DNA of 64,000 bases from Asanoa ishikariensis (lineage in GTDB: Bacteria; Actinomycetota; Actinomycetes; Mycobacteriales; Micromonosporaceae). The DNA is taken from NCBI RefSeq assembly GCF_900107455.1, contig NZ_FNQB01000002.1:1798001-1862000 (forward strand), written 5' to 3'. Position 1 is the first letter of the stretch. Each line of letters starts with the position of its first letter. A program made the position numbers and the translations under genes. Under the pieces are notes generated by a model, which searched no databases, had not been told where the DNA came from, and saw only the letters and a program-made list of their open reading frames with translations. This document shows positions 31,151-44,638 of this stretch, in pieces.

Positions 31151-33405
31151 GCACACTCACGCGCGAGCCGACCACCGTCGCGGGCGGCGTCGGCACCTCG
31201 GCCCCCCGCCCCGACGGCGTCCTCAAGGTGTCCGGCGAGTTCGCCTACTCGTCCGACCTGTGGGCCGACGAGATGCTGTGGGGCGCGACGGTCCGCTCGC
31301 CGCACCCGAGCGCCGAGATCCGCGCCGTCGACATCACCGGGGCGCTGGCCGTGCCCGGCGTCTACGCCGTGCTGACCGCCGCCGACGTGCCCGGCGCCAA
31401 GCGCTATGGGCTCGAGATCGTCGACCAGCCGGTGCTCGCCGTCGACGAGGTCCGCTACGAGGGCGAGCCGGTGGCGCTCGTGGCCGCCGACCACCCGGAG
31501 ACCGCCCGCCGGGCCGCCGCCCGGATCAAGGTGGAATACGCGGTACGCGCCCCGGTCACCGACCCCGAGGAGGCGCTGTCCCGCGGCGACCTGGTCCGGC
31601 ACGTGCCGGTGCACCGGTTCGCCTCGGCCGGCGGCGACGCGCTGACCGCCGACGTGGTGGTCACCGGCACGTACGAGGTCGGCATGCAGGACCAGGCGTT
31701 CCTCGGTCCCGAGTCCGGGCTCGCGGTGCCGGCCGAGGACGGCGGCATCGACCTGTTCGTCGCCACCCAGTGGCTGCACGTCGACCAGAAGCAGGTGGCC
31801 GCATGTCTCGCACTTGCGCCGGAGCAGGTGCGGCTGCGGCTGGCCGGCGTCGGCGGTGCCTTCGGCGCCCGCGAGGACCTGTCGATGCAGGTGCACGCCA
31901 GCCTGCTCGCGCTGCACACCGGCAAGCCGGTCAAGATGGTGTACGGCCGGGAGGAGTCGTTCTTCGGCCACGTGCACCGGCATCCGGCGCGGCTGGAGTA
32001 CGAGCACGGCGCCGACCGGACCGGCAAGCTGGTCTACGTCAAGGCGCGGATCGTGCTCGACGGCGGCGCGTACACCTCGTCGACCCCCGCCGTCGTGGCC
32101 AACGCGGCCACCCTCGGCGTCGGGCCCTACGACGTGCCGACGGTCGTGGTCGACGCGTACGGCGTCTACACGAACAACCCGCCCTGCGGCGCGATGCGCG
32201 GCTTCGGTGCGGTGCAGGCATGCTTCGCGTACGAGTCGCAGATGGACAAGCTGGCCGCCGCCATCGGTGTCGACCCGGTGGAGGTCCGCCGCCGCAACGC
32301 GATGACGACCGGCTCGGTGATGCCGACCGGCCAGATCGTGTCCGGCCCGGCGCCGGTGGAAGAGCTGCTCTCGCTCGTGCGCGACCGGCCGTTGCCGCCC
32401 GAGGCCACCGGTGACCCGCGCGAGCGGCCCGGCGGGGTCGCCAACACCACCCGCGGCGAGGGCGTGGTGCGCGGCGTCGGCTATGCGATCGGCATCAAGA
32501 ACGTCTGCTTCTCCGAGGGCTTCGACGACTTCTCGACCGCCCGGGTGCGGCTGTCCGTGCTCGGCGGCGAGCCCGCGGTGCTCGTGCACACCGCCGCCGC
32601 CGAGGTCGGCCAGGGACTGGTCACCGTGCAGGCGCAGATCGCCCGCACGGAGCTCGGCGTCAGCCAGGTCACCGTGGCCACCGCCGACACCTCGGTGGGC
32701 AGCGCCGGCTCGTCGTCCGCGTCCCGCCAGACGTACATGACCGGTGGCGCGGTCCGGGCGGCCTGCCAGGCGGTGCGCGCCACGGTGCTGGAGCGCACCG
32801 GTCGCGCCGATGCTCTGTCGCTCGTCGACGGCAAGGTCGTGGCGTCCGACGGGTCGGTGGTGGCGTCGCTGGTCGAGCTGCTCGGCGAAGGGGACGTCGA
32901 GGAGACCGTGGAGTGGCGGCACAAGCCGACCATGCCGCTCGACCCGGTCACGGGCCAGGGCGACGCGCACGTGCAGTACGCGTTCGCCGCCCACCGCGCG
33001 GTCGTCGACGTCGACACCGAGCTCGGCCTGGTCCGGGTGGTCGAGATCGCCACCGCGCAGGACGTCGGCAAGGCGGTCAACCCGCAGGCGGTCGTCGGCC
33101 AGATCCAGGGCGGCACGGCCCAGGGGCTCGGGCTCGCGGTGATGGAGGAGATCCAGGTGGTCGACGGGGTGATCCGGAACCCGTCCTTCACCGACTACCT
33201 GATCCCGACCATCCTCGACATGCCGCCGATGGAGGTCGACGTGCTGGAACGCGGTGACCCGGACGCGCCCTACGGCCTACGCGGGGTGGGCGAGCCACCG
33301 ACCATCTCCTCGACGCCCGCGGTGGTGGCGGCCATCCGCGCGGCCACCGGGCTGGCCCTGACCCGTGTGCCGGTGCGCCCGGACCACATCGCGCTGGCCC
33401 CATGA
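31147..33405 (+). CDS. Xanthine dehydrogenase molybdopterin-binding subunit
   Basis: A 752-residue catalytic subunit. Motifs along the chain include GGAFGAREDL (Mo cofactor loop), PPCGAMRGFGAVQACFAYE (substrate-side Arg), AEVGQGLVTVQAQIA (cofactor binding Gln) and the C-terminal LRGVGEPPTISS that carries the catalytic Glu. It hydroxylates hypoxanthine and xanthine to urate. The adjacent MobA/MocA-like gene suggests a dinucleotide cofactor. The Mo, FAD and FeS subunits are separate, as in many Gram-positive bacteria, and their order (FAD, FeS, deaminase, Mo) is interrupted by the deaminase. Confidence 0.95.
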   Translation: MSTLTREPTTVAGGVGTSAPRPDGVLKVSGEFAYSSDLWADEMLWGATVRSPHPSAEIRAVDITGALAVPGVYAVLTAADVPGAKRYGLEIVDQPVLAVDEVRYEGEPVALVAADHPETARRAAARIKVEYAVRAPVTDPEEALSRGDLVRHVPVHRFASAGGDALTADVVVTGTYEVGMQDQAFLGPESGLAVPAEDGGIDLFVATQWLHVDQKQVAACLALAPEQVRLRLAGVGGAFGAREDLSMQVHASLLALHTGKPVKMVYGREESFFGHVHRHPARLEYEHGADRTGKLVYVKARIVLDGGAYTSSTPAVVANAATLGVGPYDVPTVVVDAYGVYTNNPPCGAMRGFGAVQACFAYESQMDKLAAAIGVDPVEVRRRNAMTTGSVMPTGQIVSGPAPVEELLSLVRDRPLPPEATGDPRERPGGVANTTRGEGVVRGVGYAIGIKNVCFSEGFDDFSTARVRLSVLGGEPAVLVHTAAAEVGQGLVTVQAQIARTELGVSQVTVATADTSVGSAGSSSASRQTYMTGGAVRAACQAVRATVLERTGRADALSLVDGKVVASDGSVVASLVELLGEGDVEETVEWRHKPTMPLDPVTGQGDAHVQYAFAAHRAVVDVDTELGLVRVVEIATAQDVGKAVNPQAVVGQIQGGTAQGLGLAVMEEIQVVDGVIRNPSFTDYLIPTILDMPPMEVDVLERGDPDAPYGLRGVGEPPTISSTPAVVAAIRAATGLALTRVPVRPDHIALAP

Positions 33406-34577
33406 CGCTTCCGGAGTCGGTCTACCGGGACCTCGACGCGCAGCTCGCCCCCGTCGACGCGGTGCTGCGGGCGAGACCGCGGGCCGCGGTGACCGGGCGG
33501 CAGCCGGTGCACACGGTCTACGTACCCGCTGACAAGTTCGGGCCCTCCGTGGTCTCGGCGTGGGGCTCCGCGGCGCTCGCCGCCCTGGACGCGTCCTCCG
33601 CGCTGCCGTTCCCCGAGGAGCTGCGCGACCGGGTGGTGGCCAAGCTGGCCCGCGAGCCGGTCGAGGACCTGCGGATCGACTTCGAGGACGGCTACGGCGA
33701 CCGCGGTGACGACGTCGAGGACGCCGCGGCGGCCGCCGCCGGTGCCGCGCTGCTGTCGCTGTCCCCAGCACCGCCGTTCGTCGGCCTGCGGATCAAGTCG
33801 CTGGAGGAAGGCACCCGCCGGCGCGGCGTACGCACGCTGGACCTGTTCCTGTCCGCCGTGGACGGTGCCCTGCCGCCCGGCTTCGTGGTGACCGTGCCGA
33901 AGGTGAGCGCGCCGGCCCAGGTGGCGGCGATGGCCCGGCTCTGCGCCCAACTCGAGCTGGCCCACGGCCTGCCGGCGCGCTCGCTGCTGTTCGAGGCCCA
34001 GGTCGAGACCCCACTGGCGGTGCTCGGCCCGGACGGCACCGCGACGGTGTCCCGATTGGCGGCGGCGGCCCAGGGTCGGTTGGTCGGCCTGCACTACGGC
34101 ACCTACGACTACAGCGCGGCGCTCGGCGTCGCGGCGGCCGAGCAGAGCCTCGCCCATCCGGTCGCCGATCACGCCAAGGCGGTCATGCAGGTGGCGGTGG
34201 CAGGCACCGGCGTGCGGCTGTCCGACGGGTCGTGCAACATCCTGCCGGTCGGCCCCGGCATCCAGGCGGCCTGGCAGCTCCACCACCGGTTGGTGCTGCG
34301 CTCCCTGGCCCGCGGCTTCTACCAGGGCTGGGACCTGCACCCCGCGCAGCTACCGACCCGGTTCGCGGCCACCTACGCGTTCTTCCGGGGTGGCTCGGCC
34401 CCCGCGGTCGAGCGGCTCGGCGCCTATCTCGAACGCCGATCCTCTGGGATCCTGGACGAGCCGGCGACGGCCCGGGCCCTGGCCGGTTTCCTGTTGCGCG
34501 GCCTGGACTGTGGCGCCCTGGACCCGCCCGAGGTGCCGTTCACCCGTCCGGACCTGGAGGCGCTGTGGGCTTCGTGA
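33402..34577 (+). CDS. DUF6986 HpcH/HpaI aldolase-like protein
   Basis: A 391-residue protein related to the HpcH/HpaI aldolase and citrate-lyase beta superfamily: the acidic metal-site motif DLRIDFEDGYGDRGDD is near residue 90-105, SLLFEAQVETPLAVL near 195, and LHYGTYDYSAALG near 230. It matches my memory of the DUF6986 family, which recurs in actinobacterial purine or ureide clusters. The barrel and Glu/Asp metal site fit a C-C lyase or malate-synthase-like condensation acting on glyoxylate or ureidoglycolate. That is inference; no substrate is known. It overlaps both neighbours. Confidence 0.8.
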   Translation: MTLPESVYRDLDAQLAPVDAVLRARPRAAVTGRQPVHTVYVPADKFGPSVVSAWGSAALAALDASSALPFPEELRDRVVAKLAREPVEDLRIDFEDGYGDRGDDVEDAAAAAAGAALLSLSPAPPFVGLRIKSLEEGTRRRGVRTLDLFLSAVDGALPPGFVVTVPKVSAPAQVAAMARLCAQLELAHGLPARSLLFEAQVETPLAVLGPDGTATVSRLAAAAQGRLVGLHYGTYDYSAALGVAAAEQSLAHPVADHAKAVMQVAVAGTGVRLSDGSCNILPVGPGIQAAWQLHHRLVLRSLARGFYQGWDLHPAQLPTRFAATYAFFRGGSAPAVERLGAYLERRSSGILDEPATARALAGFLLRGLDCGALDPPEVPFTRPDLEALWAS

Positions 34578-35887
34578 TCCGCTCGACCCGGGTGGTGCTG
34601 CCCGACGGCTCGGTCGACCCGGCCGGTGTCGAGATGCGCGACGGGCGGATAGCCGCGGTGCTGCCCGGCCGGCCCCGCGCGGACATCGACCTCGGCGACC
34701 TGGTGCTGATGCCCGGCCTGGTCGACACCCACGTGCACGTCAACGAGCCGGGCCGCACCGAGTGGGAGGGCTTCGGCTCCGCGACCCGGGCCGCGCTGGC
34801 CGGCGGGGTGACCACGATCATCGACATGCCGCTCAACTCGCTGCCGCCGACCGTGTCGGCCGAGGCGCTGGCGGCGAAGCAGGCGGCGGCCGCCGGCCAG
34901 TGCCACGTCGACGTGGGCTTCTGGGGTGGCGCGATCCCGGGCAACGCCGGCGACCTGGCCGCCCTGCACGCGGCCGGGGTGTTCGGCTTCAAGGCGTTCC
35001 TGGCCGACTCCGGCGTGCCCGAGTTCCCGCCGGTGACCTCGGCCGAGCTACGCGCCGCGATGGCCGCCGTGGACGCGCTGTTCCTGGTGCACGCCGAGGA
35101 CCCGGACCGGCTGGGGGTGTCCCCGGCGTCGCGGGTCTATGCGGACTTCGAGAGTTCGCGCCCCGGCGCGGCCGAGTGCTCGGCGGTCGGCGCGGCGCTG
35201 GACGCCGCCGAGGCGACCGGCTCGCGGGTGCACATCCTGCATGTCTCCGACGCCGACGCCGCCACCGTGGTCGAGGCCGGCCGGGCCCGCGGCGTGCGGG
35301 TGACCGCGGAGACCTGCCCGCACTACCTCACCCTGGACGCGGCCGAGGTGCCCGACGGCGCGACCGAGTTCAAGTGCTGCCCGCCGATCCGCGGCGCGGC
35401 CAACCGCGACCGGCTCTGGGCCGCGCTCGCGGCGGGCGGGCTCGACATCGTGGTCTCGGACCACTCACCGTCGACGCCGGCCCTCAAGCACCCCGAGACC
35501 GGCGACTTCGCGGCGGCCTGGGGCGGCATCGCGTCCCTCCAGCTCGGCCTGCCGCTGGTCTGGACCAGCGCCGCCGCCCGCGGTCACGATCTCGCGGACG
35601 TGGTGCGGTGGATGTCCAGCGGCCCCGCCGACCTGGTCGGCCTGCACCACAAGGGACGGATCGCGCCCGGCGCCGACGCCGACCTGGTGGCCTTCGACCC
35701 GGACGCCACCTTCACCGTGCGGCCGGACGGGCTGCACCACAAGCATCCGGTCACCCCGTACGCCGGCCGGCGGTTGACCGGTGTGGTCCGCCGGGTCTGG
35801 CTCGGCGGCACCAAGGTGACGCCCGGCGACCCGCCGCGCGGCCGGCTGCTGACCCGCTCCGCCGACCTGCTGGAGCCGGCCCGATGA
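34565..35887 (+). CDS. allB: Allantoinase
   Basis: A 440-residue cyclic amidohydrolase that opens allantoin to allantoate. The metal-binding motif LMPGLVDTHVHVNEPGRTEWEG is at residues about 48-70, with the bridging-Lys region FGFKAFL near 142, HAEDPDR, RVHILHVSD, and the final Asp ligand in VVSDHSPS. The start GTG 34565 has GGAGG 4-5 bases upstream and overlaps the previous gene by 13 bp; GTG 34574 (GTGA overlap) is an alternative. The next gene begins inside its stop as ATGA. Confidence 0.94.
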   Translation: MGFVIRSTRVVLPDGSVDPAGVEMRDGRIAAVLPGRPRADIDLGDLVLMPGLVDTHVHVNEPGRTEWEGFGSATRAALAGGVTTIIDMPLNSLPPTVSAEALAAKQAAAAGQCHVDVGFWGGAIPGNAGDLAALHAAGVFGFKAFLADSGVPEFPPVTSAELRAAMAAVDALFLVHAEDPDRLGVSPASRVYADFESSRPGAAECSAVGAALDAAEATGSRVHILHVSDADAATVVEAGRARGVRVTAETCPHYLTLDAAEVPDGATEFKCCPPIRGAANRDRLWAALAAGGLDIVVSDHSPSTPALKHPETGDFAAAWGGIASLQLGLPLVWTSAAARGHDLADVVRWMSSGPADLVGLHHKGRIAPGADADLVAFDPDATFTVRPDGLHHKHPVTPYAGRRLTGVVRRVWLGGTKVTPGDPPRGRLLTRSADLLEPAR

Positions 35888-36906
35888 CCGCGTGGCTGGC
35901 CCTTCCCGACCTGGCGTCCCGGCGCCTCGGCGGTGGTGTGGTCGGCACCAACGATGAGCTGTTCGCCGCCGCCGACAACCTGGTCACGCCGGAGCCGCCG
36001 GGGTTCACCCCGCGCACGTTCGGCCCCAAGGGCCAGGTGTACGACGGTTGGGAGACCCGCCGCCGCCGCTCGCCCGGTGAGGACTGGGCGATCGTCCGGC
36101 TGGGCGTGCCGGGCCGGGTGCGCGGGGTCGTGGTCGACACCTCGCACTTCACCGGCAACTTCCCGCCCGAGGCATCGGTCTTCGGCTGCCGGCTGGGCGG
36201 CCATCCCTCGCTGGACGACCTGAATGCGGCCGACTGGGCGCCGCTGCTGTCCCGTTCGCCGCTGGCCGGTGACACGGCCAACCCGTTCGACGTCTCGGTC
36301 GACCAGCTCGTGACCCACGTCAAGCTGGTGATCCACCCCGACGGGGGAGTGGCCCGGCTGCGCGTGCACGGCGAGGTCGTGCCGGACCCGGTCCGCTTCC
36401 CGGACGGCTGGCTCGACCTGGCCGCGGTCGACAACGGCGGCCGGGTGGTCGGGTGCAGCGACCTGTTCTACGGTGCGCCCAGCCAGCTCATCGAGCCCGG
36501 GCTGGCGCGCACGATGGGCGAGGGCTGGGAGACCCGGCGGCGCCGCGACTCCGGCAACGACTGGGTCGTCGTGCGGCTCGCGGCGCCCGGCCGGATCCGC
36601 CTCGCGGAGCTGGACACCTCACACTTCAAGGGCAACGCACCCGGTGCGGCCGCGCTGCGCGGCGTCGACGAGCGCAAGGCCGACCCGGCCGACGAGAGCG
36701 CCTGGCGCGACCTCCTGCCGCACACCCCGCTGCGTCCGGACACCCGGCACCGCTTCGAGGTCCGCACCGATCCGGTCACCCACGTGCGCCTCGACATCCA
36801 TCCCGACGGCGGCATGGCCCGGCTGCGGCTGCACGGCCACCTCGACGACGGAGTGCTCGACACGCTGCGCGCGGCGTGGCAGCCGCGGGCCGGTGGAGGA
36901 AACTGA
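35884..36906 (+). CDS. alc: Allantoicase
   Basis: A 340-residue protein of two homologous beta-sandwich halves. Each has the same set of motifs: KGQVYDGWETRRRR with VVVDTSHFTGNFP in the first, and GEGWETRRRRDSGNDWVVVRL with AELDTSHFKGNAP in the second, and each ends with HPDGG.ARLR.HG. The enzyme cleaves allantoate to ureidoglycolate and urea. It completes the urate-to-ureidoglycolate chain encoded by the operon. The following SepF-like gene starts 4 bp after its stop. Confidence 0.95.
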   Translation: MTAWLALPDLASRRLGGGVVGTNDELFAAADNLVTPEPPGFTPRTFGPKGQVYDGWETRRRRSPGEDWAIVRLGVPGRVRGVVVDTSHFTGNFPPEASVFGCRLGGHPSLDDLNAADWAPLLSRSPLAGDTANPFDVSVDQLVTHVKLVIHPDGGVARLRVHGEVVPDPVRFPDGWLDLAAVDNGGRVVGCSDLFYGAPSQLIEPGLARTMGEGWETRRRRDSGNDWVVVRLAAPGRIRLAELDTSHFKGNAPGAAALRGVDERKADPADESAWRDLLPHTPLRPDTRHRFEVRTDPVTHVRLDIHPDGGMARLRLHGHLDDGVLDTLRAAWQPRAGGGN

Positions 36907-36910
36907 GGCA

Positions 36911-37150
36911 ATGCTCAAAACCGTCCGGCCGCGCAGCTACAGCGACGTCATCCACGTCGGACACCTCTTCTGCCACGACGTGACCGTGGTGATGGACCTG
37001 ACCGACCTGGGCGACGGCGACCCCACACCCCTGGTCGACTTCGCCGCGGGCCTGATCGTCGCCCGCGACGGTGCCATGGAGAAGCTCGCACCCAAGGTCT
37101 TCATGCTCACCCCCCGCGTCAGCTTGTCGCCAGCGCCTCGGTCGGAGTGA
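36911..37150 (+). CDS. Stand-alone SepF-domain protein
   Basis: A 79-residue protein that matches the C-terminal core of the cell-division protein SepF: LKTVRPRSYSDVIHVGHLF, VVMDLTDLGDGDPTPLVDFAAGL, and EKLAPKVFMLTP. SepF links FtsZ to the membrane through an N-terminal amphipathic helix, but that helix and the linker are absent here. It lies 4 bp after the allantoicase stop, so it is probably cotranscribed with purine breakdown genes. Whether it binds FtsZ or has been recruited elsewhere is unknown. Its last 32 bp overlap the convergent permease gene. Confidence 0.8.
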   Translation: MLKTVRPRSYSDVIHVGHLFCHDVTVVMDLTDLGDGDPTPLVDFAAGLIVARDGAMEKLAPKVFMLTPRVSLSPAPRSE

Positions 37151-38318
37151 GGCGGGCGGCGCGGACCGCTGGATAGACCCCGGCCGCCACGCCGACCAGC
37201 AGGGCGGCGCCGATGCCGACCGCCACCGAGGCCACCGGGACCACCGCCGGCCAGCCCTGGTAGCCGGCGTACCCGACGGTCGCGAGCACGCCCAGCACCG
37301 TGCCCGCGGCCCCGCCCGAGAGCGAGAGCAGCACGGACTCGGTGAGGAACTGCGCCCTGATCTGCCCTCGGTTGGCGCCGAGGGCCCGCCGCAGGCCGAT
37401 CTCCCGGCGCCGTTCCAGCACCGAGATGAGCATGGTGTTCGCCACGCCGACCCCGCCCACCAGCAGGGCCACCCCGGCCAGGCCGAGGAAGAGCCCCGCG
37501 AAGGCCGTCTCGGTGGCCTGCTTGGCGGCCAGCGCGTCGGACGGGCGGCTGACCTGGACCAGGCCGGGTAGCTGCGGGTCGAGGGTGGCGGGCAGCACGC
37601 CGCGTACGTCGTTCAGCGCCTCCTCGCGGGCCCGCACGTAGACGACGGTCGGGTGGCCGTCGAAGCCCAGGACGCCGCGGGCCGGCTCCCAGCCGACCAG
37701 CGCCGACCGTTCGAGGTCGGGAGCGAGCGGCATCGGGTCCAGCACCCCGACCACCGAGAACCAGTGGTCGTCGATGCTGACCTGCGGCAGCGGCTGGCCC
37801 GGGACGAGGGCGACGCCGAGCCGGCTCGCCGCGACATAGCCGAGCACCACCGTCGGGAACTGCTCGTCGGCACCGAGGAAGCGGCCGGAGCGGACCCGGC
37901 CGTTGACGGTCTCGAGCAGGTCGCCGCGCGCGGCCAGCACGGTGAGCCCGGACGTGTCGTGCGGGTCGACCAGGTCGCTGCGGCGCACCACGGCGTGCGT
38001 GTTGGCCACGGCGCTGGTCGCCAGCACCGGACCGATCCGCTCGACCATGGCCACGGAGTTCTCGGGCAGGAGCACCGGCGGCTTCTGGTCCGGCACCGGC
38101 TGCACGCGCAGCAGGTTGGTGCCCAGCGCCGAGAGCTGGTCGGCGAGGTCCCGCTGGCTGGAGGCCGGGATGCCGGCGACGACGACCATCGTGGCGATGC
38201 CGATCGAGATGCCGAGCGCGGACAGGACGGCCCGCATCCGGCGGGCGGTGATGCCGAGCAGGCCGAGCCGCAGCACGTCGACCGGTGCGAGCCGGATCGG
38301 CTCCGGCGGCCGGTTCAC
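37119..38318 (-). CDS. MacB-type ABC transporter permease
   Basis: A 399-residue permease of the FtsX/MacB type with one N-terminal helix ([24 protein letters not shown]), a large extracytoplasmic domain (residues about 50-270) and three C-terminal helices flanking the signature [33 protein letters not shown]. Such permeases do not pass substrates through the membrane but drive envelope-side transfer (mechanotransmission). GTG 38318 overlaps the ATPase stop as GTGA. It is the last gene of the four-gene lipoprotein-adaptor-ATPase-permease operon. Confidence 0.9.
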
Positions 38319-38998
38319 CGGACGCTCCCGGTGTCGACCACGATCCGGCCGTCGCGGATCTCCACCCGGCGGGGCAGCCGAGCGGCGATCTCCCGATCGT
38401 GGGTGATGACGGCGATCGTCGTGCCCTCGGCGTGCAGGCCGCTCAGCAGGGCCAGCACCGCCTCACCGGTGGCGGTGTCCAACGCACCCGTCGGCTCGTC
38501 GGCAAGCACCAGCGCCGGGTCGTTGACCAGGGCCCGGGCGATCGCCACCCGTTGGCGCTCACCGCCGGAGAGCTGGTGCGGCAGGTGGTCCACCCGGTGC
38601 GCCAGCCCGACCCGGCCCAACGCCTCGACCGCCATCGCGCGCCTCCGGCGCCGGGGCACGCCCGCGTAGAGCAGCCCGGTGGCGACGTTCTCGACGGCGT
38701 CGACCCCGGAGTTGAGGTGGAACTGCTGGAAGACGAAGCCGAGCCAGCGGCCCCGCAGCGCGGACAGGCGGCGGTCCGGGAGGCTGGTGACGTCGTGGCC
38801 CGCGACGCGTACCCGGCCGCTGGTGGGCAGGTCGAGAGTGCCCATGATGTGCAGCAGCGTCGACTTGCCGGACCCGGACGGCCCGACGATGGCGACGAGC
38901 TCTCCGGCGTGGATGGTCAGCGACACCTCGTCGAGCGCGGTGACGCCGCCCGGGTAGCGCTTGCTGACCCCTTCCACGCTCAGCACCGGTGCGCTCAC
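38315..38998 (-). CDS. MacB/LolD-type ABC transporter ATPase
   Basis: A 227-residue ATP-binding subunit. Walker A is [20 protein letters not shown] (residues about 35-54), the Q-loop lies in [10 protein letters not shown], the signature is [16 protein letters not shown], Walker B is [13 protein letters not shown] and the switch His is in [10 protein letters not shown]. This sequence pattern is that of the LolD/MacB branch. The start GTG 38998 overlaps the adaptor stop (GTGA). Together with the permease it forms an export or peptide-detoxification pump. Confidence 0.95.
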
Positions 38999-40065
38999 GA
39001 GGCCGTCACGACCTCGAGGCCCTCGGCGACCCCGGCGCCGCTGATCTCGACCAGGCCGCGGGCGAACATGCCGGTCTCCACGGCGACCAGCGCGCCGCCC
39101 GGAAGCTGGAGGGCGTGGCCGCCCTCGCGGAGCGCGACGAGCGCGTCCACCGGGACGGCGAGCACCCCCTTGTGCGTGGTCGAGGTGAACTCGACCCGCA
39201 CCTCGGCGGCGTCCAGCGCCGCCACGTCCTTCGCCTTGTCGGGCGCGACCAGGATGTCCACCGTCGGCGGGGCGCCCTCGCCGGTGCCACCGTCGCTGCC
39301 GCCGCCCTTGACGGTGCGCGAGACGGAGGCGACCCGAGCCTTGATCTCCTTGCCGTCGGGCAGCACGACGCGCACCGCGGCGCCCACCTTGACGGTGTTG
39401 GCCTCCCCGGCGCCGACCGGCACGGTGACCAGCTTCGTTCGTTCGGTGACGGCCAGCAGCTCGGCCGCGACCTCGTCGCCCGGCAGCGCCTGCACGGTGC
39501 TCACCCGGACGGGTCCGGGCAGCACGACGGCCTGACCGACGCCGATCTTGCCCGTGGGTTCCAGCCCGAGCGACTCCTGCCACTTCTTGATCGCGGAGAG
39601 CAGCTTCGTGCCCACCACCACCTTGCCGTCCTTCGCCGGCTTGACCCCGGTCTCGTAGCCGAGCGCCGCGAGGTTGTCCGCGACGACCCGGACGTCACTG
39701 CCGGTCAGCCCGGCCTTGTCGATCGTGCGGAACAGCGGCGTGCCGCCGAACAGGACCGGGACGGGCCGGTCGTCGACCCAGTAGAGCGGCTTGCCCCGGC
39801 CGACCGTGTCGCCGACCCTGGGCAGCCGGGTGACGATGCCCGTGCCCGCGCCCTTGACGACCCGCTCCGGGCCGAAGCCGAGCGTGCCGCGCAGCGTCTG
39901 GGTGTCCGAGAGGTCGGTGCGGGTCACCTTGATCGTGGCGAGGGCCGGCGGGGGGGCGCCGGCCTCCGCGCCTTTGGCTCCACCGCGCAGGACCAGCACC
40001 GCACCGGCTGCGACCCCGAGCGCGACCACGACCACGGCGACGATCGCGGCTTTACTTCTTGCCAC
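38995..40065 (-). CDS. MacA-like membrane-fusion adaptor with PG-binding-like domain
   Basis: A 356-residue periplasmic-adaptor-type protein with a single N-terminal membrane anchor (residues about 6-27). Halves of the lipoyl/beta-barrel domains ([26 protein letters not shown] and [23 protein letters not shown]) surround an inserted peptidoglycan-binding_1-like helical domain ([39 protein letters not shown], about 120-180). This arrangement is common in actinobacterial export operons and would hold the complex in the cell wall. It overlaps the lipoprotein gene by 14 bp. Confidence 0.85.
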
Positions 40066-40645
40066 CGAAGATCTCCATCGTGCAGCTCTTCTCCGCCTTC
40101 GCCATCTCGTCCTCGTCGAGGCCCGGGCCGGCGGTGTTCACGTCGTCGTCGTACGTCCAGCCGGAGCCGTCGGGCAGCGAGTGGATGTTCGCTCCACGCT
40201 TGCGCAGGCACTGCACGTAGTCGTTCCACTGGCTCACGTAGTTCGGGTTCTTGTCCCGGTCGAGCTCCGGCGGCTGGAGCGGCAGCTTGTTCTCGCAGGC
40301 CACGTACGCCGCCTTCGGCTCGCCGCTCTGGTCGAGCGAGAGCCCGCCGCCGTCACCGACCGCACCGGCCGACCGGCCTTCGTTCTTCTTCACCCCGTGC
40401 TCGAACAGGCAGACGTTGTACGCCTGCCACAGAGCGTTCTCCTCCTCGTCCGTCGAGTCGAGACGAAGCTGCGGTCGGCCGCCGTCCGTCGCGGCGTCGC
40501 TGGCGGAGACCTTGACGTCCGGCGTGGTCAACGTGGCGACCTCGGTGCCGTTGTCCGCGCCTGGTGCCCCACCGCATCCGGTGAGTGCCGCGGCGAGCAG
40601 GACGGCGGCCGCCAGCAGGGCGGTTCGCGGGGTGGATTTCGTCAT
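40052..40645 (-). CDS. Lipoprotein with four-cysteine domain shared with the adjacent kinase
   Basis: A 197-residue lipoprotein, lipobox LTGC with C24 as the acylation site. After a Thr/Asp-rich linker the folded part (about 70-195) has four cysteines, C79, C117, C146 and C188, and the motif WTY...PGL at residues 163-176. The sensor region of the divergent kinase (41423-43225) has the same four cysteines, C163, C197, C225 and C269, with W at +17 and PGL at +28 from the third cysteine in both. I know no named family. It leads the adaptor-ATPase-permease operon and may bind the ligand sensed by the kinase. Confidence 0.75.
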   Translation of the reverse strand: MTKSTPRTALLAAAVLLAAALTGCGGAPGADNGTEVATLTTPDVKVSASDAATDGGRPQLRLDSTDEEENALWQAYNVCLFEHGVKKNEGRSAGAVGDGGGLSLDQSGEPKAAYVACENKLPLQPPELDRDKNPNYVSQWNDYVQCLRKRGANIHSLPDGSGWTYDDDVNTAGPGLDEDEMAKAEKSCTMEIFGGKK

Positions 40646-40665
40646 GCGGCGACCGTCCCGAACGA

Positions 40666-40687
40666 CTGTCAGAAACCTGTGAGGAAC
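40666..40687. promoter_or_regulatory. Tandem 11-bp direct repeat, likely OmpR-type operator
   Basis: Two adjacent 11-mers, CTGTCAGAAAC (40666-40676) and CTGTGAGGAAC (40677-40687), differ at two positions. On the minus strand this reads TCACAG-N5-TGACAG, the spacing of binding boxes for OmpR/PhoB-family regulators (compare the PhoP box of M. tuberculosis). It lies 21 bp upstream of the lipoprotein start and 59 bp upstream of the regulator start. Confidence 0.6.
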
Positions 40688-40746
40688 CGATGGCCATCCT
40701 GTAGTCGCAGTTCAGCGGCGGGGTCAACCGACGTAGAGTCGCCGCC

Positions 40747-41433
40747 GTGCGCGCTCATGTCGTGGTGGCCGAGGACGACGAGAAGCAGGCCGAGCTCGCC
40801 CGCCGCTACCTGGAGCGGGACGGGCACACGGTCGTCGTGGTCCCCGACGGCCGCGCCGCGCTGGAGCAGATCCGCCGGCATCCGCCCGCCCTGGTCGTCC
40901 TCGACGTGATGATGCCGGGGGTCGACGGCCTGGACGTGTGCCGCATCCTCCGGCAGGAGTCCGACGTGCCGGTGCTGATGCTGACGGCCCGGTCGACCGA
41001 GGACGACCTGCTGCTCGGCCTGGACCTGGGCGCCGACGACTACATGACCAAGCCGTACAGCCCGCGGGAGCTGGTCGCGCGCGTGCGGACCCTGCTGCGG
41101 CGCGGCCAGCGGACCGCCGCGGACCCGGTGCACCGGGTGGGCGGCCTGGGCGTGGACCCGGTGCGCCACGAGGTGACCTGCGACGGCCGGACCGTCGACT
41201 GCACGCCCGGTGAGTTCGCACTGCTCGAGGCGATGGCCGCGCAGCCCGGCCGGGTGTTCACCCGGGACCAGTTGCTCACCCGGCTGCACGGTTTCGACCG
41301 CTACATCACCAACCGCACGGTCGACGTACACGTGATGAACCTCCGCAAGAAGATCGAGCCCAACCCGCGCAAACCGAGCCGCCTGGTCACCGTGTACGGC
41401 GTCGGCTACAAGCTGGTCGACCGTGCCCCGTGA
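40747..41433 (+). CDS. OmpR/PhoB-family response regulator
   Basis: A 228-residue regulator. Receiver domain: acidic cluster E9/D10/D11, phospho-acceptor D53 in ALVVLDVMMPG, and K in DYMTKPYSPREL. The C-terminal winged helix (about 128-225) shows CTPGEFALLEAMAAQPGRVFTRDQLL and TVDVHVMNLRKKIEPNP. GTG 40747 is the start. It is transcribed with the kinase (11-bp overlap) and is divergent from the lipoprotein-pump operon, which it probably controls through the 11-bp repeats. Confidence 0.95.
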   Translation: MRAHVVVAEDDEKQAELARRYLERDGHTVVVVPDGRAALEQIRRHPPALVVLDVMMPGVDGLDVCRILRQESDVPVLMLTARSTEDDLLLGLDLGADDYMTKPYSPRELVARVRTLLRRGQRTAADPVHRVGGLGVDPVRHEVTCDGRTVDCTPGEFALLEAMAAQPGRVFTRDQLLTRLHGFDRYITNRTVDVHVMNLRKKIEPNPRKPSRLVTVYGVGYKLVDRAP

Positions 41434-43225
41434 GGTCCCGCTGCGCCGCAGCCTGCTGTTGCGCCTGCTGGCGCTGGCCGTCCTGGTGGCGCTCGCGTCC
41501 ATCGCGGCGACCGCGTGGCTGGCGGTGCGCACGACCACCGGCGCGATCCGGCAGGAGCAGGGCCAGACGATCGCCGACGACGCGCGGATCTACGACACCC
41601 TGCTCGGCTACGCGGCGACGCACCCGGACTGGACCGGTGTCCAGGACACCCTGCGGCCGCTCGCCCGGCGGGTCGGCCGGCGGGTCGCGCTGACCACCGG
41701 GTCCGGCACGCCGATCGCGGACTCGGCGCCGTCGGCGGGTCAACTGCCCGCGAAACCGTCGGCGACGATCGACGCGCTCTCCGTGGACGCCACCCTGAGC
41801 CCGGAGTCGGGCGGCGCCGACCGGATCGACCCGCGCGCGGTCGGGCCGTACCTGCTGCCGCCCGACGAACGCGCCGCGCTGCGCGCCAGGGCCGACGTGG
41901 CGGTCACGTGCCTGCGGGGTCGCGGGAAGATCGAGGCGTCGGTGGTCGACACACCCAGTGGGCGCCCCCGGATCGAGACCGAAGGCCCGAACCAGCCCGA
42001 CGACATCATCTGCCTGGACGCGCGCGCGGACCTGGCCGCTCCGACGGCCACCGAGACCAAGGCGCTCGGCCAGCTCAACGCCCTGGTGAACACCTGCCTG
42101 GCCCGGCGCCAGGTGCCCGCGGTGCGGGTCGCGCAGGACCAGACCTGGACCTGGCGGGACTCGGCCGCGGTCGCCAGCCCGGGCTTGTCGCGGAAGGAGC
42201 AGGAGGACAACCGGGCGGTCAACGCGTGCATCGGCGGCAGCCGGCGGGAACAACTCCTCCCGTTCGTGGCCCCGGCCGCGACGCTCTTCGTCGCCGACCC
42301 GGGCGGCCGCCCGTCGGCCAAGTTCGACCTGTCCCCGGCCAACCGGGCCCGGATCGTGCTCGTCGCGGGACTCGTGCTGTTGGTGACCGTCGTCGTCACC
42401 GTGCTCGCCGGCATCCGGCTCACCCGCCCGCTGCACGCGTTGACCGCCGCGGCGCAGCGGATGCGCGACGGTGACGGCGCCGCCCGGGTGCGGGTGACCG
42501 GCCGCGACGAGATCGCCCGGCTGGCCGAGGCCTTCAACGACATGGCGGAACGGCGAACGCGCCTGGAGCAGCTACGCCGGGCGATGGTCGGCGACGTCGC
42601 GCACGAGATGCGTACCCCGGTCAGCAACATCCGGGGCTGGCTGGAGGCCGCCGAGGACGGGGTCGTGGTGGCCGACCGGCGCCTGCTCGGCTCGCTGCTG
42701 GAGGAGGCCATCCTGCTCCAACACGTGATCGACGACCTCCAGGACCTGGCCCAGGCCGACGCGGGGGCGCTGCGGCTGCACGCCGAGCACGTCTACCTCG
42801 CCGACCTGCTGGCCCAGGTCGCCGCGACCCACCCGGGCGTCCTGCTGCGGGTCGACGGTGACCCGGAGTTGTTCGCCGACCCGGTGCGGCTCCGGCAGAT
42901 CGTCGGGAACCTGGTCGCCAACGCGGTGCGGCACACGCCCCCGGGCGGGTCCGTGACGGTGAGCGCCCAGGTGGCCGGCTCCGAGGTGGTCATCGCCGTC
43001 GCCGACACCGGCACCGGGATCAGCGCCGAGGACCTGCCCCGGGTGTTCGAGCGGTTCTGGCGGGCGGAGAAGTCCCGGAGCCGGCGCAGCGGGGGCAGCG
43101 GCCTCGGCCTCGCCATCGTCCGCAAGCTCGTCGAGGCGCACGGCGGGACGGTCACCGCCACGAGCGTCGTCGGGCAGGGCTCGACCTTCACGGTCCGGTT
43201 GCCCGGGCAGGGTCCTGTGTCGTAA
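41423..43225 (+). CDS. Sensor histidine kinase with extracytoplasmic four-cysteine domain
   Basis: A 600-residue kinase, GTG 41423. Two membrane helices (about 10-33 and 310-330) enclose a sensor region of about 275 residues whose second half carries C163, C197, C225 and C269, closely matching the lipoprotein encoded across the divide. A HAMP domain (RLTRPLHALTAAAQRM) leads to HisKA with phospho-His H394 (GDVAHEMRTPVSN), then the HATPase with NAVRHTPPGG, ADTGTGISAEDLPRVFERF and SGLGLAIVRKLVEAHGG. It should phosphorylate the OmpR-type partner in response to an envelope signal. Confidence 0.93.
   Translation: MPREVPLRRSLLLRLLALAVLVALASIAATAWLAVRTTTGAIRQEQGQTIADDARIYDTLLGYAATHPDWTGVQDTLRPLARRVGRRVALTTGSGTPIADSAPSAGQLPAKPSATIDALSVDATLSPESGGADRIDPRAVGPYLLPPDERAALRARADVAVTCLRGRGKIEASVVDTPSGRPRIETEGPNQPDDIICLDARADLAAPTATETKALGQLNALVNTCLARRQVPAVRVAQDQTWTWRDSAAVASPGLSRKEQEDNRAVNACIGGSRREQLLPFVAPAATLFVADPGGRPSAKFDLSPANRARIVLVAGLVLLVTVVVTVLAGIRLTRPLHALTAAAQRMRDGDGAARVRVTGRDEIARLAEAFNDMAERRTRLEQLRRAMVGDVAHEMRTPVSNIRGWLEAAEDGVVVADRRLLGSLLEEAILLQHVIDDLQDLAQADAGALRLHAEHVYLADLLAQVAATHPGVLLRVDGDPELFADPVRLRQIVGNLVANAVRHTPPGGSVTVSAQVAGSEVVIAVADTGTGISAEDLPRVFERFWRAEKSRSRRSGGSGLGLAIVRKLVEAHGGTVTATSVVGQGSTFTVRLPGQGPVS

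Positions 43226-44638
<1,413 letters not shown>

What the first reader, a model, noticed from the sequence alone, without database searches (positions are those of the whole stretch)
40052..43225. A four-cysteine domain shared by a lipoprotein and the divergent sensor kinase
The lipoprotein (40052-40645) has C79, C117, C146, C188 and the kinase sensor region (41423-43225) has C163, C197, C225, C269; the intervals are 38/29/42 and 34/28/44. From the third Cys, W lies at +17 and PGL at +28 in both, and both start CLxxRx after that Cys. The two genes sit on opposite sides of one promoter region, one operon encoding lipoprotein, adaptor, MacB-type ATPase and permease, the other the regulator and kinase. 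This suggests one ligand (peptide, lipid II-type compound, oxidant or metal) is bound by both, with the lipoprotein acting as capture or signal protein. I know no named family for the domain.
Basis: partly seen in the sequence, partly recalled or inferred. Interest (0 to 1): 0.85.

Follow-up and report, generated by a model that had tools for sequence, protein, structure and literature searches.

The report
Lipoprotein and sensor share four-cysteine domain
A surface lipoprotein made with an export pump and the sensor that probably switches the pump on carry related versions of an unnamed, internally repeated four-cysteine domain, which suggests that pump and sensor recognise the same kind of envelope signal.

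Summary
In detail: cysteines, intervals, W+17 and PGL+28 are as stated. In the window and 8 close relatives, cysteines and W+17 are kept in 9 of 9 pairs, PGL in 2 of 9. In the wider set, 55 of 56 kinase sensor regions have exactly four cysteines and 70 of 71 lipoproteins a lipobox cysteine plus four.

The resemblance is probably homology. An unanchored profile comparison puts the lipoprotein domain on the four-cysteine part of the kinase, all cysteines in register (62%, E 7.5e-5); shuffles and control families score far lower. Each is a tandem repeat; in the kinase it appears inserted into a PAS-like core.

Lipoprotein, MacB-type pump and two-component genes stay linked through rearrangements; an operator-like repeat occurs once in the genome, at this promoter.

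"One ligand for both" is unproven: a sister lipoprotein branch serves the pump beside kinases lacking the domain, and 8 of 20 kinase genomes tested show no lipoprotein with three profiles. Best reading: a pump-associated recognition module also used as sensor domain.

The parts
40052..40645 (-). Lipoprotein, 197 aa, lipobox TGC24, four-Cys domain
   Evidence: no Pfam/NCBIfam above cut-off
40055..40465 (-). Four-Cys domain of the lipoprotein (residues 61-197): tandem repeat, C79/C117 and C146/C188
   Evidence: hhalign repeat 1 vs repeat 2 of the family E 3.5e-8, 0 of 50 shuffles
38995..40065 (-). Pump adaptor with PG_binding_1 domain; overlaps the lipoprotein gene by 14 bases
   Evidence: Pfam PF01471 E 1.6e-6
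38315..38998 (-). ABC transporter ATPase
   Evidence: Pfam PF00005 E 4e-34; end from the ORF list
37119..38318 (-). MacB-type permease
   Evidence: Pfam FtsX E 2e-22 and MacB_PCD E 1e-14
40667..40683 (-). Operator-like direct repeat CTNACA-N5-CTNACA between the two operons
   Evidence: 1 match in 64 kb, expected 0.03, 3 of 100 shuffles with a match; an 18-base form occurs once in the 9.09 Mb genome, here; 17 matches in 16 of 68 related loci
40747..41433 (+). OmpR-family response regulator
   Evidence: Pfam Response_reg and Trans_reg_C
41423..43225 (+). Sensor histidine kinase, 600 aa (gene overlaps the regulator gene by 11 bases)
   Evidence: Pfam HAMP, HisKA, HATPase_c
41831..42268 (+). Four-Cys domain of the kinase (about residues 137-282): two helix-hairpin-helix units, inserted in a PAS-like extracytoplasmic core
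   Evidence: AF2 model, mean pLDDT 72 for the best of five; repeat 1 vs repeat 2 E 1.4e-5; core aligned to 3cwf_B and DctB on both sides of the insert

Best explanation
A duplicated, probably disulfide-braced four-cysteine module serves as the extracytoplasmic recognition part of an envelope-stress or detoxification pump system. The lipoprotein presents it on the membrane beside the adaptor, ATPase and MacB-type permease, as capture or immunity factor. A related copy is inserted in the PAS-like sensor domain of the kinase, so the two-component system reads the same class of compound (most likely a membrane- or wall-active peptide or a wall precursor). The regulator then binds the CTNACA-N5-CTNACA repeat and switches on lipoprotein and pump. 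Shown here: the two domains, their duplication, their profile similarity, gene linkage, and a conserved repeat at the promoter. Predicted: the PAS-like core with the insert. Inferred: common descent (about 0.8), disulfides, regulator binding to that repeat, pump function. Conjecture: the shared ligand and its identity.
For: Unanchored profile match of the lipoprotein domain to the whole ectodomain, E 7.5e-5, Cys in register; E 1.7e-5 with larger Cys-anchored sets, none of 50 and 60 shuffles reaching it; six control families at most 17.8 against 31.1. Both internally duplicated. Kinase model: helix(C)-hairpin-helix(C) twice; better half of the lipoprotein model has that order. Four Cys in 55 of 56 kinases and 70 of 71 lipoproteins. 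Same six-gene layout in 8 of 8 close loci; linkage kept through rearrangement. Operator-like repeat. Of ten Streptomyces plasmid loci opened, four have a lipoprotein of the family within 3 kb of the two-component genes; in two of these the stretch shows the ATPase and permease too. Kinases without a detected lipoprotein keep all four Cys, so the domain can serve a sensor on its own.
Against: Homology probability 57-78% in the larger whole-set comparisons, 15.7% and 1.2% in smaller ones; HMMER does not link the two. Kinase repeat 2 matches the lipoprotein repeats poorly. Lipoprotein model poor (mean pLDDT 46); the five kinase models range from 51 to 72. No significant solved relative by sequence or Foldseek. 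Cognate-pair signal slight and carried by the window pair. CMREHG-type systems work with kinases lacking the domain. 35 of 51 loci with the four-Cys kinase lack the exact repeat. No substrate, binding or expression data.
Confidence: 0.45

Rival explanations
1. The lipoprotein's domain binds the kinase's domain directly (like with like) and holds the kinase off; pump substrate or envelope damage removes it. The lipoprotein is a negative feedback regulator, as lipoproteins are proposed to modulate CseC and AfsQ2, and need not bind the same ligand.
For: Related domains in neighbouring products; lipoprotein and kinase stay linked through rearrangements; lipoproteins proposed to act on kinases are described in Streptomyces (PMC9739842, passages on CseA and AfsQ3).
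Against: Kinases with four Cys occur in 8 of 20 tested genomes without a detected lipoprotein. Cognate-specific similarity is slight, which is not a test of interface coevolution.
Confidence: 0.25
2. The domains are not related by descent: two extracytoplasmic helical proteins acquired similar duplicated two-Cys helical hairpins, and the linkage reflects only a common regulon.
For: Profile probability below 95% throughout; sub-threshold Pfam hits of the lipoproteins to CHCH, Cx9C and PBP_GOBP show that helical Cys patterns give weak matches; HMMER is blind to the link.
Against: All four Cys in register in an unanchored comparison; shuffles that keep the Cys columns reach 13.3 against 33.4; both duplicated, with lipoprotein repeat 2 against kinase repeat 1 at E 2e-6.
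Confidence: 0.2
3. The lipoprotein is a structural subunit of the pump and senses nothing; the kinase copy detects pump assembly or wall state by touching the adaptor or the wall.
For: The CMREHG-type lipoprotein lies beside pump genes in 20 of 20 loci fetched for it, with or without a kinase; the adaptor has a peptidoglycan-binding domain.
Against: Five fetched lipoprotein loci (L125-L129) show none of the pump or kinase genes within about 5 kb.
Confidence: 0.1

Closest known systems
CseA-CseBC and AfsQ3-AfsQ1Q2 of Streptomyces coelicolor (PMC9739842, passages read)
   Same: Lipoprotein encoded with an actinobacterial two-component system, proposed to act on the kinase
   Different: No shared lipoprotein and kinase domain is mentioned in the passages read; CseA and AfsQ3 sequences were not compared here; no MacB-type pump in those passages
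BvgS-type kinases with Venus-flytrap sensor domains (PMC4352136, search listing)
   Same: Works alike in outline: sensor domain of the kind used by transport-associated binding proteins (that part recalled)
   Different: No Venus-flytrap fold indicated; here small helical four-Cys repeats, predicted as an insert in a PAS-like core
MacAB and YknWXYZ pumps (PMC5985334, PMC4887032, search listings)
   Same: FtsX/MacB_PCD permease with ATPase and adaptor; YknWXYZ protects Bacillus against a peptide toxin
   Different: Adaptor with PG_binding_1, plus lipoprotein and linked two-component system; ATPase and permease on separate genes
NisI-NisFEG and BceAB-RS modules (PMC8003753, passages read)
   Same: Peptide-binding lipoprotein plus ABC pump (NisI); pump plus two-component pairing (Bce)
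   Different: BceS-type kinases lack an extracytoplasmic domain; this one has about 275 residues
HbpS-SenS-SenR of streptomycetes (PMC4991794, search listing)
   Same: Secreted accessory protein with a sensor kinase
   Different: Redox-stress system; no shared domain known to me (recalled)

Membership tests
MacAB-type pump | Permease with MacB periplasmic core and FtsX domains | tested here: met
   Pfam PF02687 E 2e-22, PF12704 E 1e-14
MacAB-type pump | MacA/HlyD-type adaptor | tested here: inconclusive
   Only PG_binding_1 above cut-off in the adaptor; no fold test done
MacAB-type pump | ATPase fused to the permease (as recalled for MacB) | tested here: not met
   ATPase and permease are separate genes
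MacAB-type pump | TolC exit duct | not tested
   No search made
Lipoprotein | Signal peptide with lipobox cysteine | tested here: met
   TGC at 24; lipobox pattern followed by exactly four Cys in 70 of 71; pattern only, no dedicated predictor
Extracytoplasmic PAS-like (PhoR/DctB type) sensor kinase | PAS-like core between the two membrane helices | tested here: inconclusive
CHCH / Cx9C proteins | CX9C motifs | tested here: not met
   Intervals 38/29/42 and 34/28/44; Pfam hits below gathering
BceAB-RS | Kinase without extracytoplasmic domain | tested here: not met
   About 275-residue region between the membrane helices
Venus-flytrap sensor kinases (BvgS) | Bilobed periplasmic-binding fold | tested here: inconclusive
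   Not listed; absence from these lists excludes nothing
CseA/AfsQ3 lipoproteins | Sequence relation to CseA or AfsQ3 | not tested
   No sequences fetched

The most novel reading that the evidence does not exclude
A copy of the lipoprotein's four-cysteine repeat was inserted into the sensor domain of a PAS-type kinase, so that pump-side capture protein and sensor compete for one pool of ligand: the kinase fires only when the lipoprotein and pump are saturated, a titration switch built from two copies of one previously unnamed domain. The sister systems with a domain-less kinase would be the state without it.
Probability: 0.25. Interest if true: 0.72.

Novelty: new variant of a known kind. Interest (0 to 1): 0.55.

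Why it matters
It points to an unnamed actinomycete domain: the CMREHG-type lipoprotein profile matches 75 of 296, and the kinase-ectodomain profile 45 of 296, class-level genomes sampled (some kinase matches cover only part of the profile). It links pumps to sensors, in Streptomyces and Micromonospora among others. If both copies bind the same compound, the lipoprotein is a soluble, assayable proxy for the ligand of a sensor kinase, and orphan kinase ligands become testable.

Full report
What is there. The window lies in a 9.09 Mb genome, by its relatives a Micromonosporaceae (inferred); the nearest named relative of the locus is Asanoa hainanensis. On the minus strand, overlapping genes encode a lipoprotein (40052-40645), an adaptor with a peptidoglycan-binding domain, an ABC ATPase and an FtsX/MacB_PCD permease; on the plus strand, an OmpR-family regulator and a 600-residue histidine kinase.

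What is conserved. The same six-gene divergent layout is present in 8 of 8 loci returned by the close search. There, W+17 is kept in 9 of 9 pairs (window included) and PGL in 2 of 9. In the wider set W+17 fades (11 of 71 lipoproteins, 14 of 56 kinases). Exactly four cysteines remain in 55 of 56 kinase sensor regions (310 residues from the match start; L116 has a fifth near the second membrane helix), and a lipobox cysteine plus exactly four in 70 of 71 lipoproteins. At class level, 20 of 20 kinases that I fetched from the 45 matching genomes again show four, although the C3-C4 loop reaches 146 residues in L169.

Is it one domain? The two window sequences give BLASTP E 4e-4 for one comparison. 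Family profiles give score 33.4, E 1.7e-5, probability 78% (59 lipoproteins, 55 kinases, segments cut around the cysteines). Shuffled columns reach at most 14.8 in 50, and shuffles that keep the Cys columns at most 13.3 in 60. An earlier set gave score 25.2, 15.7%, against at most 18.4 in 100 shuffles of each kind. With the lipoprotein domain (30 rows) against the whole ectodomain (29 rows), unanchored, the match falls on the four-cysteine part with all cysteines aligned (62%, E 7.5e-5). With 94 and 76 sequences it is 68%, E 5e-5, score 31.1, while six control families from the same loci score at most 17.8. The CMREHG branch (9 rows) against the kinases gives 26%, E 7e-4. Against: HMMER does not link the two in the own genome, the nine close sequences per side give 1.2%, and no comparison of lipoprotein with kinase reaches 95%; the best is 89%, lipoprotein repeat 2 against kinase repeat 1.

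Linkage. In 150 sampled family genomes (own included) 25 carry both, 8 and 8 only one, and 109 neither (Fisher P 6e-15; relatedness not corrected; both searches taken to have drawn the same genomes). 38 of 56 lipoprotein hits and 38 of 59 kinase hits lie within 12 kb of each other, with the regulator or the pump genes in between and in several orientations. Of the 18 unlinked lipoprotein hits, 11 sit beside the same pump genes with a regulator and a kinase whose sensor region the query did not match, 1 beside pump genes without a kinase, 5 without any of these genes, and 1 was not fetched. Two of the 11 (L099, L132) have four cysteines with altered spacing in the kinase.

Sister systems. The CMREHG branch is related (98%, E 2e-14) and its profile matches 75 of 296 class genomes. 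In 20 loci chosen mostly from its best matches (own genome twice) pump genes lie beside it in 20 of 20 (all three genes in 19; one is cut by a contig end), regulator and kinase in 16. Of 25 kinases of such systems inspected none has four cysteines in the sensor region; L099 and L132 are not in this count. The four-Cys kinase profile matches 45 of 296 class genomes, some in part. Of 20 such loci fetched, 4 have a lipoprotein by profile and 4 more a third, longer lipoprotein form, again with a lipobox and exactly four cysteines. Of 20 kinase genomes that I chose from the 45, 13 have no hit with the first lipoprotein profile; 11 of these also lack the second, and 8 of the 11 the third. The kinases of these 8 keep four cysteines (L162, L167, L168, L171; L208-L211). 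Of ten Streptomyces plasmid loci opened, four have a lipoprotein of the family within 3 kb, annotated 'hypothetical protein'; two others (L206, L207) show pump genes without a lipoprotein in the stretch.

Regulation. A direct repeat CTNACA-N5-CTNACA lies at 40667-40683 (-), 21 bases before the lipoprotein start codon. It is the only match in 64 kb (expected 0.03), and an 18-base form occurs once in the genome, here. In 68 related loci (not all independent; L011 and L133 are one place) there are 17 matches in 16 loci, all 23 to 86 bases upstream of the BLAST-matched start of a lipoprotein, regulator or adaptor gene; none in the 17 loci without a matched four-Cys ectodomain. 35 of the 51 loci with that kinase lack this exact form. 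It is a candidate operator, not a demonstrated one.

Mechanism. The best-supported reading is a pump-associated recognition module that also serves as the sensor domain of the kinase that probably controls the pump. That both bind one ligand fits but is untested: the sister systems suggest that the lipoprotein works without a matching kinase, and the kinase-only genomes that the kinase works without the lipoprotein. The main rival, like-with-like binding of lipoprotein to kinase, is not excluded. Cognate pairs are only slightly more alike than non-cognate ones (32 pairs: P 0.038 whole, 0.018 C3-C4, 0.34 C1-C2; without the window pair 0.11, 0.11, 0.31, which corrects three mispaired loci).

Novelty. 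No Pfam or NCBIfam family above cut-off in the regions scanned and no significant solved relative. Eight literature searches listed no paper that I recognised as describing the domain. Lipoprotein-assisted kinases, binding-protein-type sensors and MacB-type pumps are each known; the shared duplicated four-cysteine domain linking them is the new part.

Noticed in passing
G000:C4:413588-413953 and G000:C5:122808-123209 (own genome, outside the window; L181, L182): Two further CMREHG-type lipoprotein matches, each beside adaptor, ATPase and permease genes; the first also has a regulator and kinase of the domain-less type.
   Followed up: partly
L172, L174, L175, L177: Long lipoproteins (roughly 355-365 residues mature) with lipobox and exactly four Cys, divergent from the regulator and four-Cys kinase; a third branch missed by the first two profiles.
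   Followed up: partly
L078, L081, L094, L124: Tandem copies of the lipoprotein gene (two or three) in one locus.
   Followed up: no
L099 and L132: Kinase with four sensor-region Cys of altered spacing (last two only 11 apart) together with a CMRSHG-type lipoprotein: possible intermediate between the two system types.
   Followed up: no
window 43283-44638 (+): Glycosyl hydrolase family 6 with CBM2 directly downstream of the kinase.
   Followed up: no
window 33402-36906 (+): DUF6986 protein, amidohydrolase and allantoicase in a row, probably allantoin degradation (pathway recalled).
   Followed up: no
L199, L205: Streptomyces plasmid loci where the four-Cys kinase is followed by a small hypothetical protein and a class F sortase, with no pump or lipoprotein gene listed in the stretch.
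   Followed up: no
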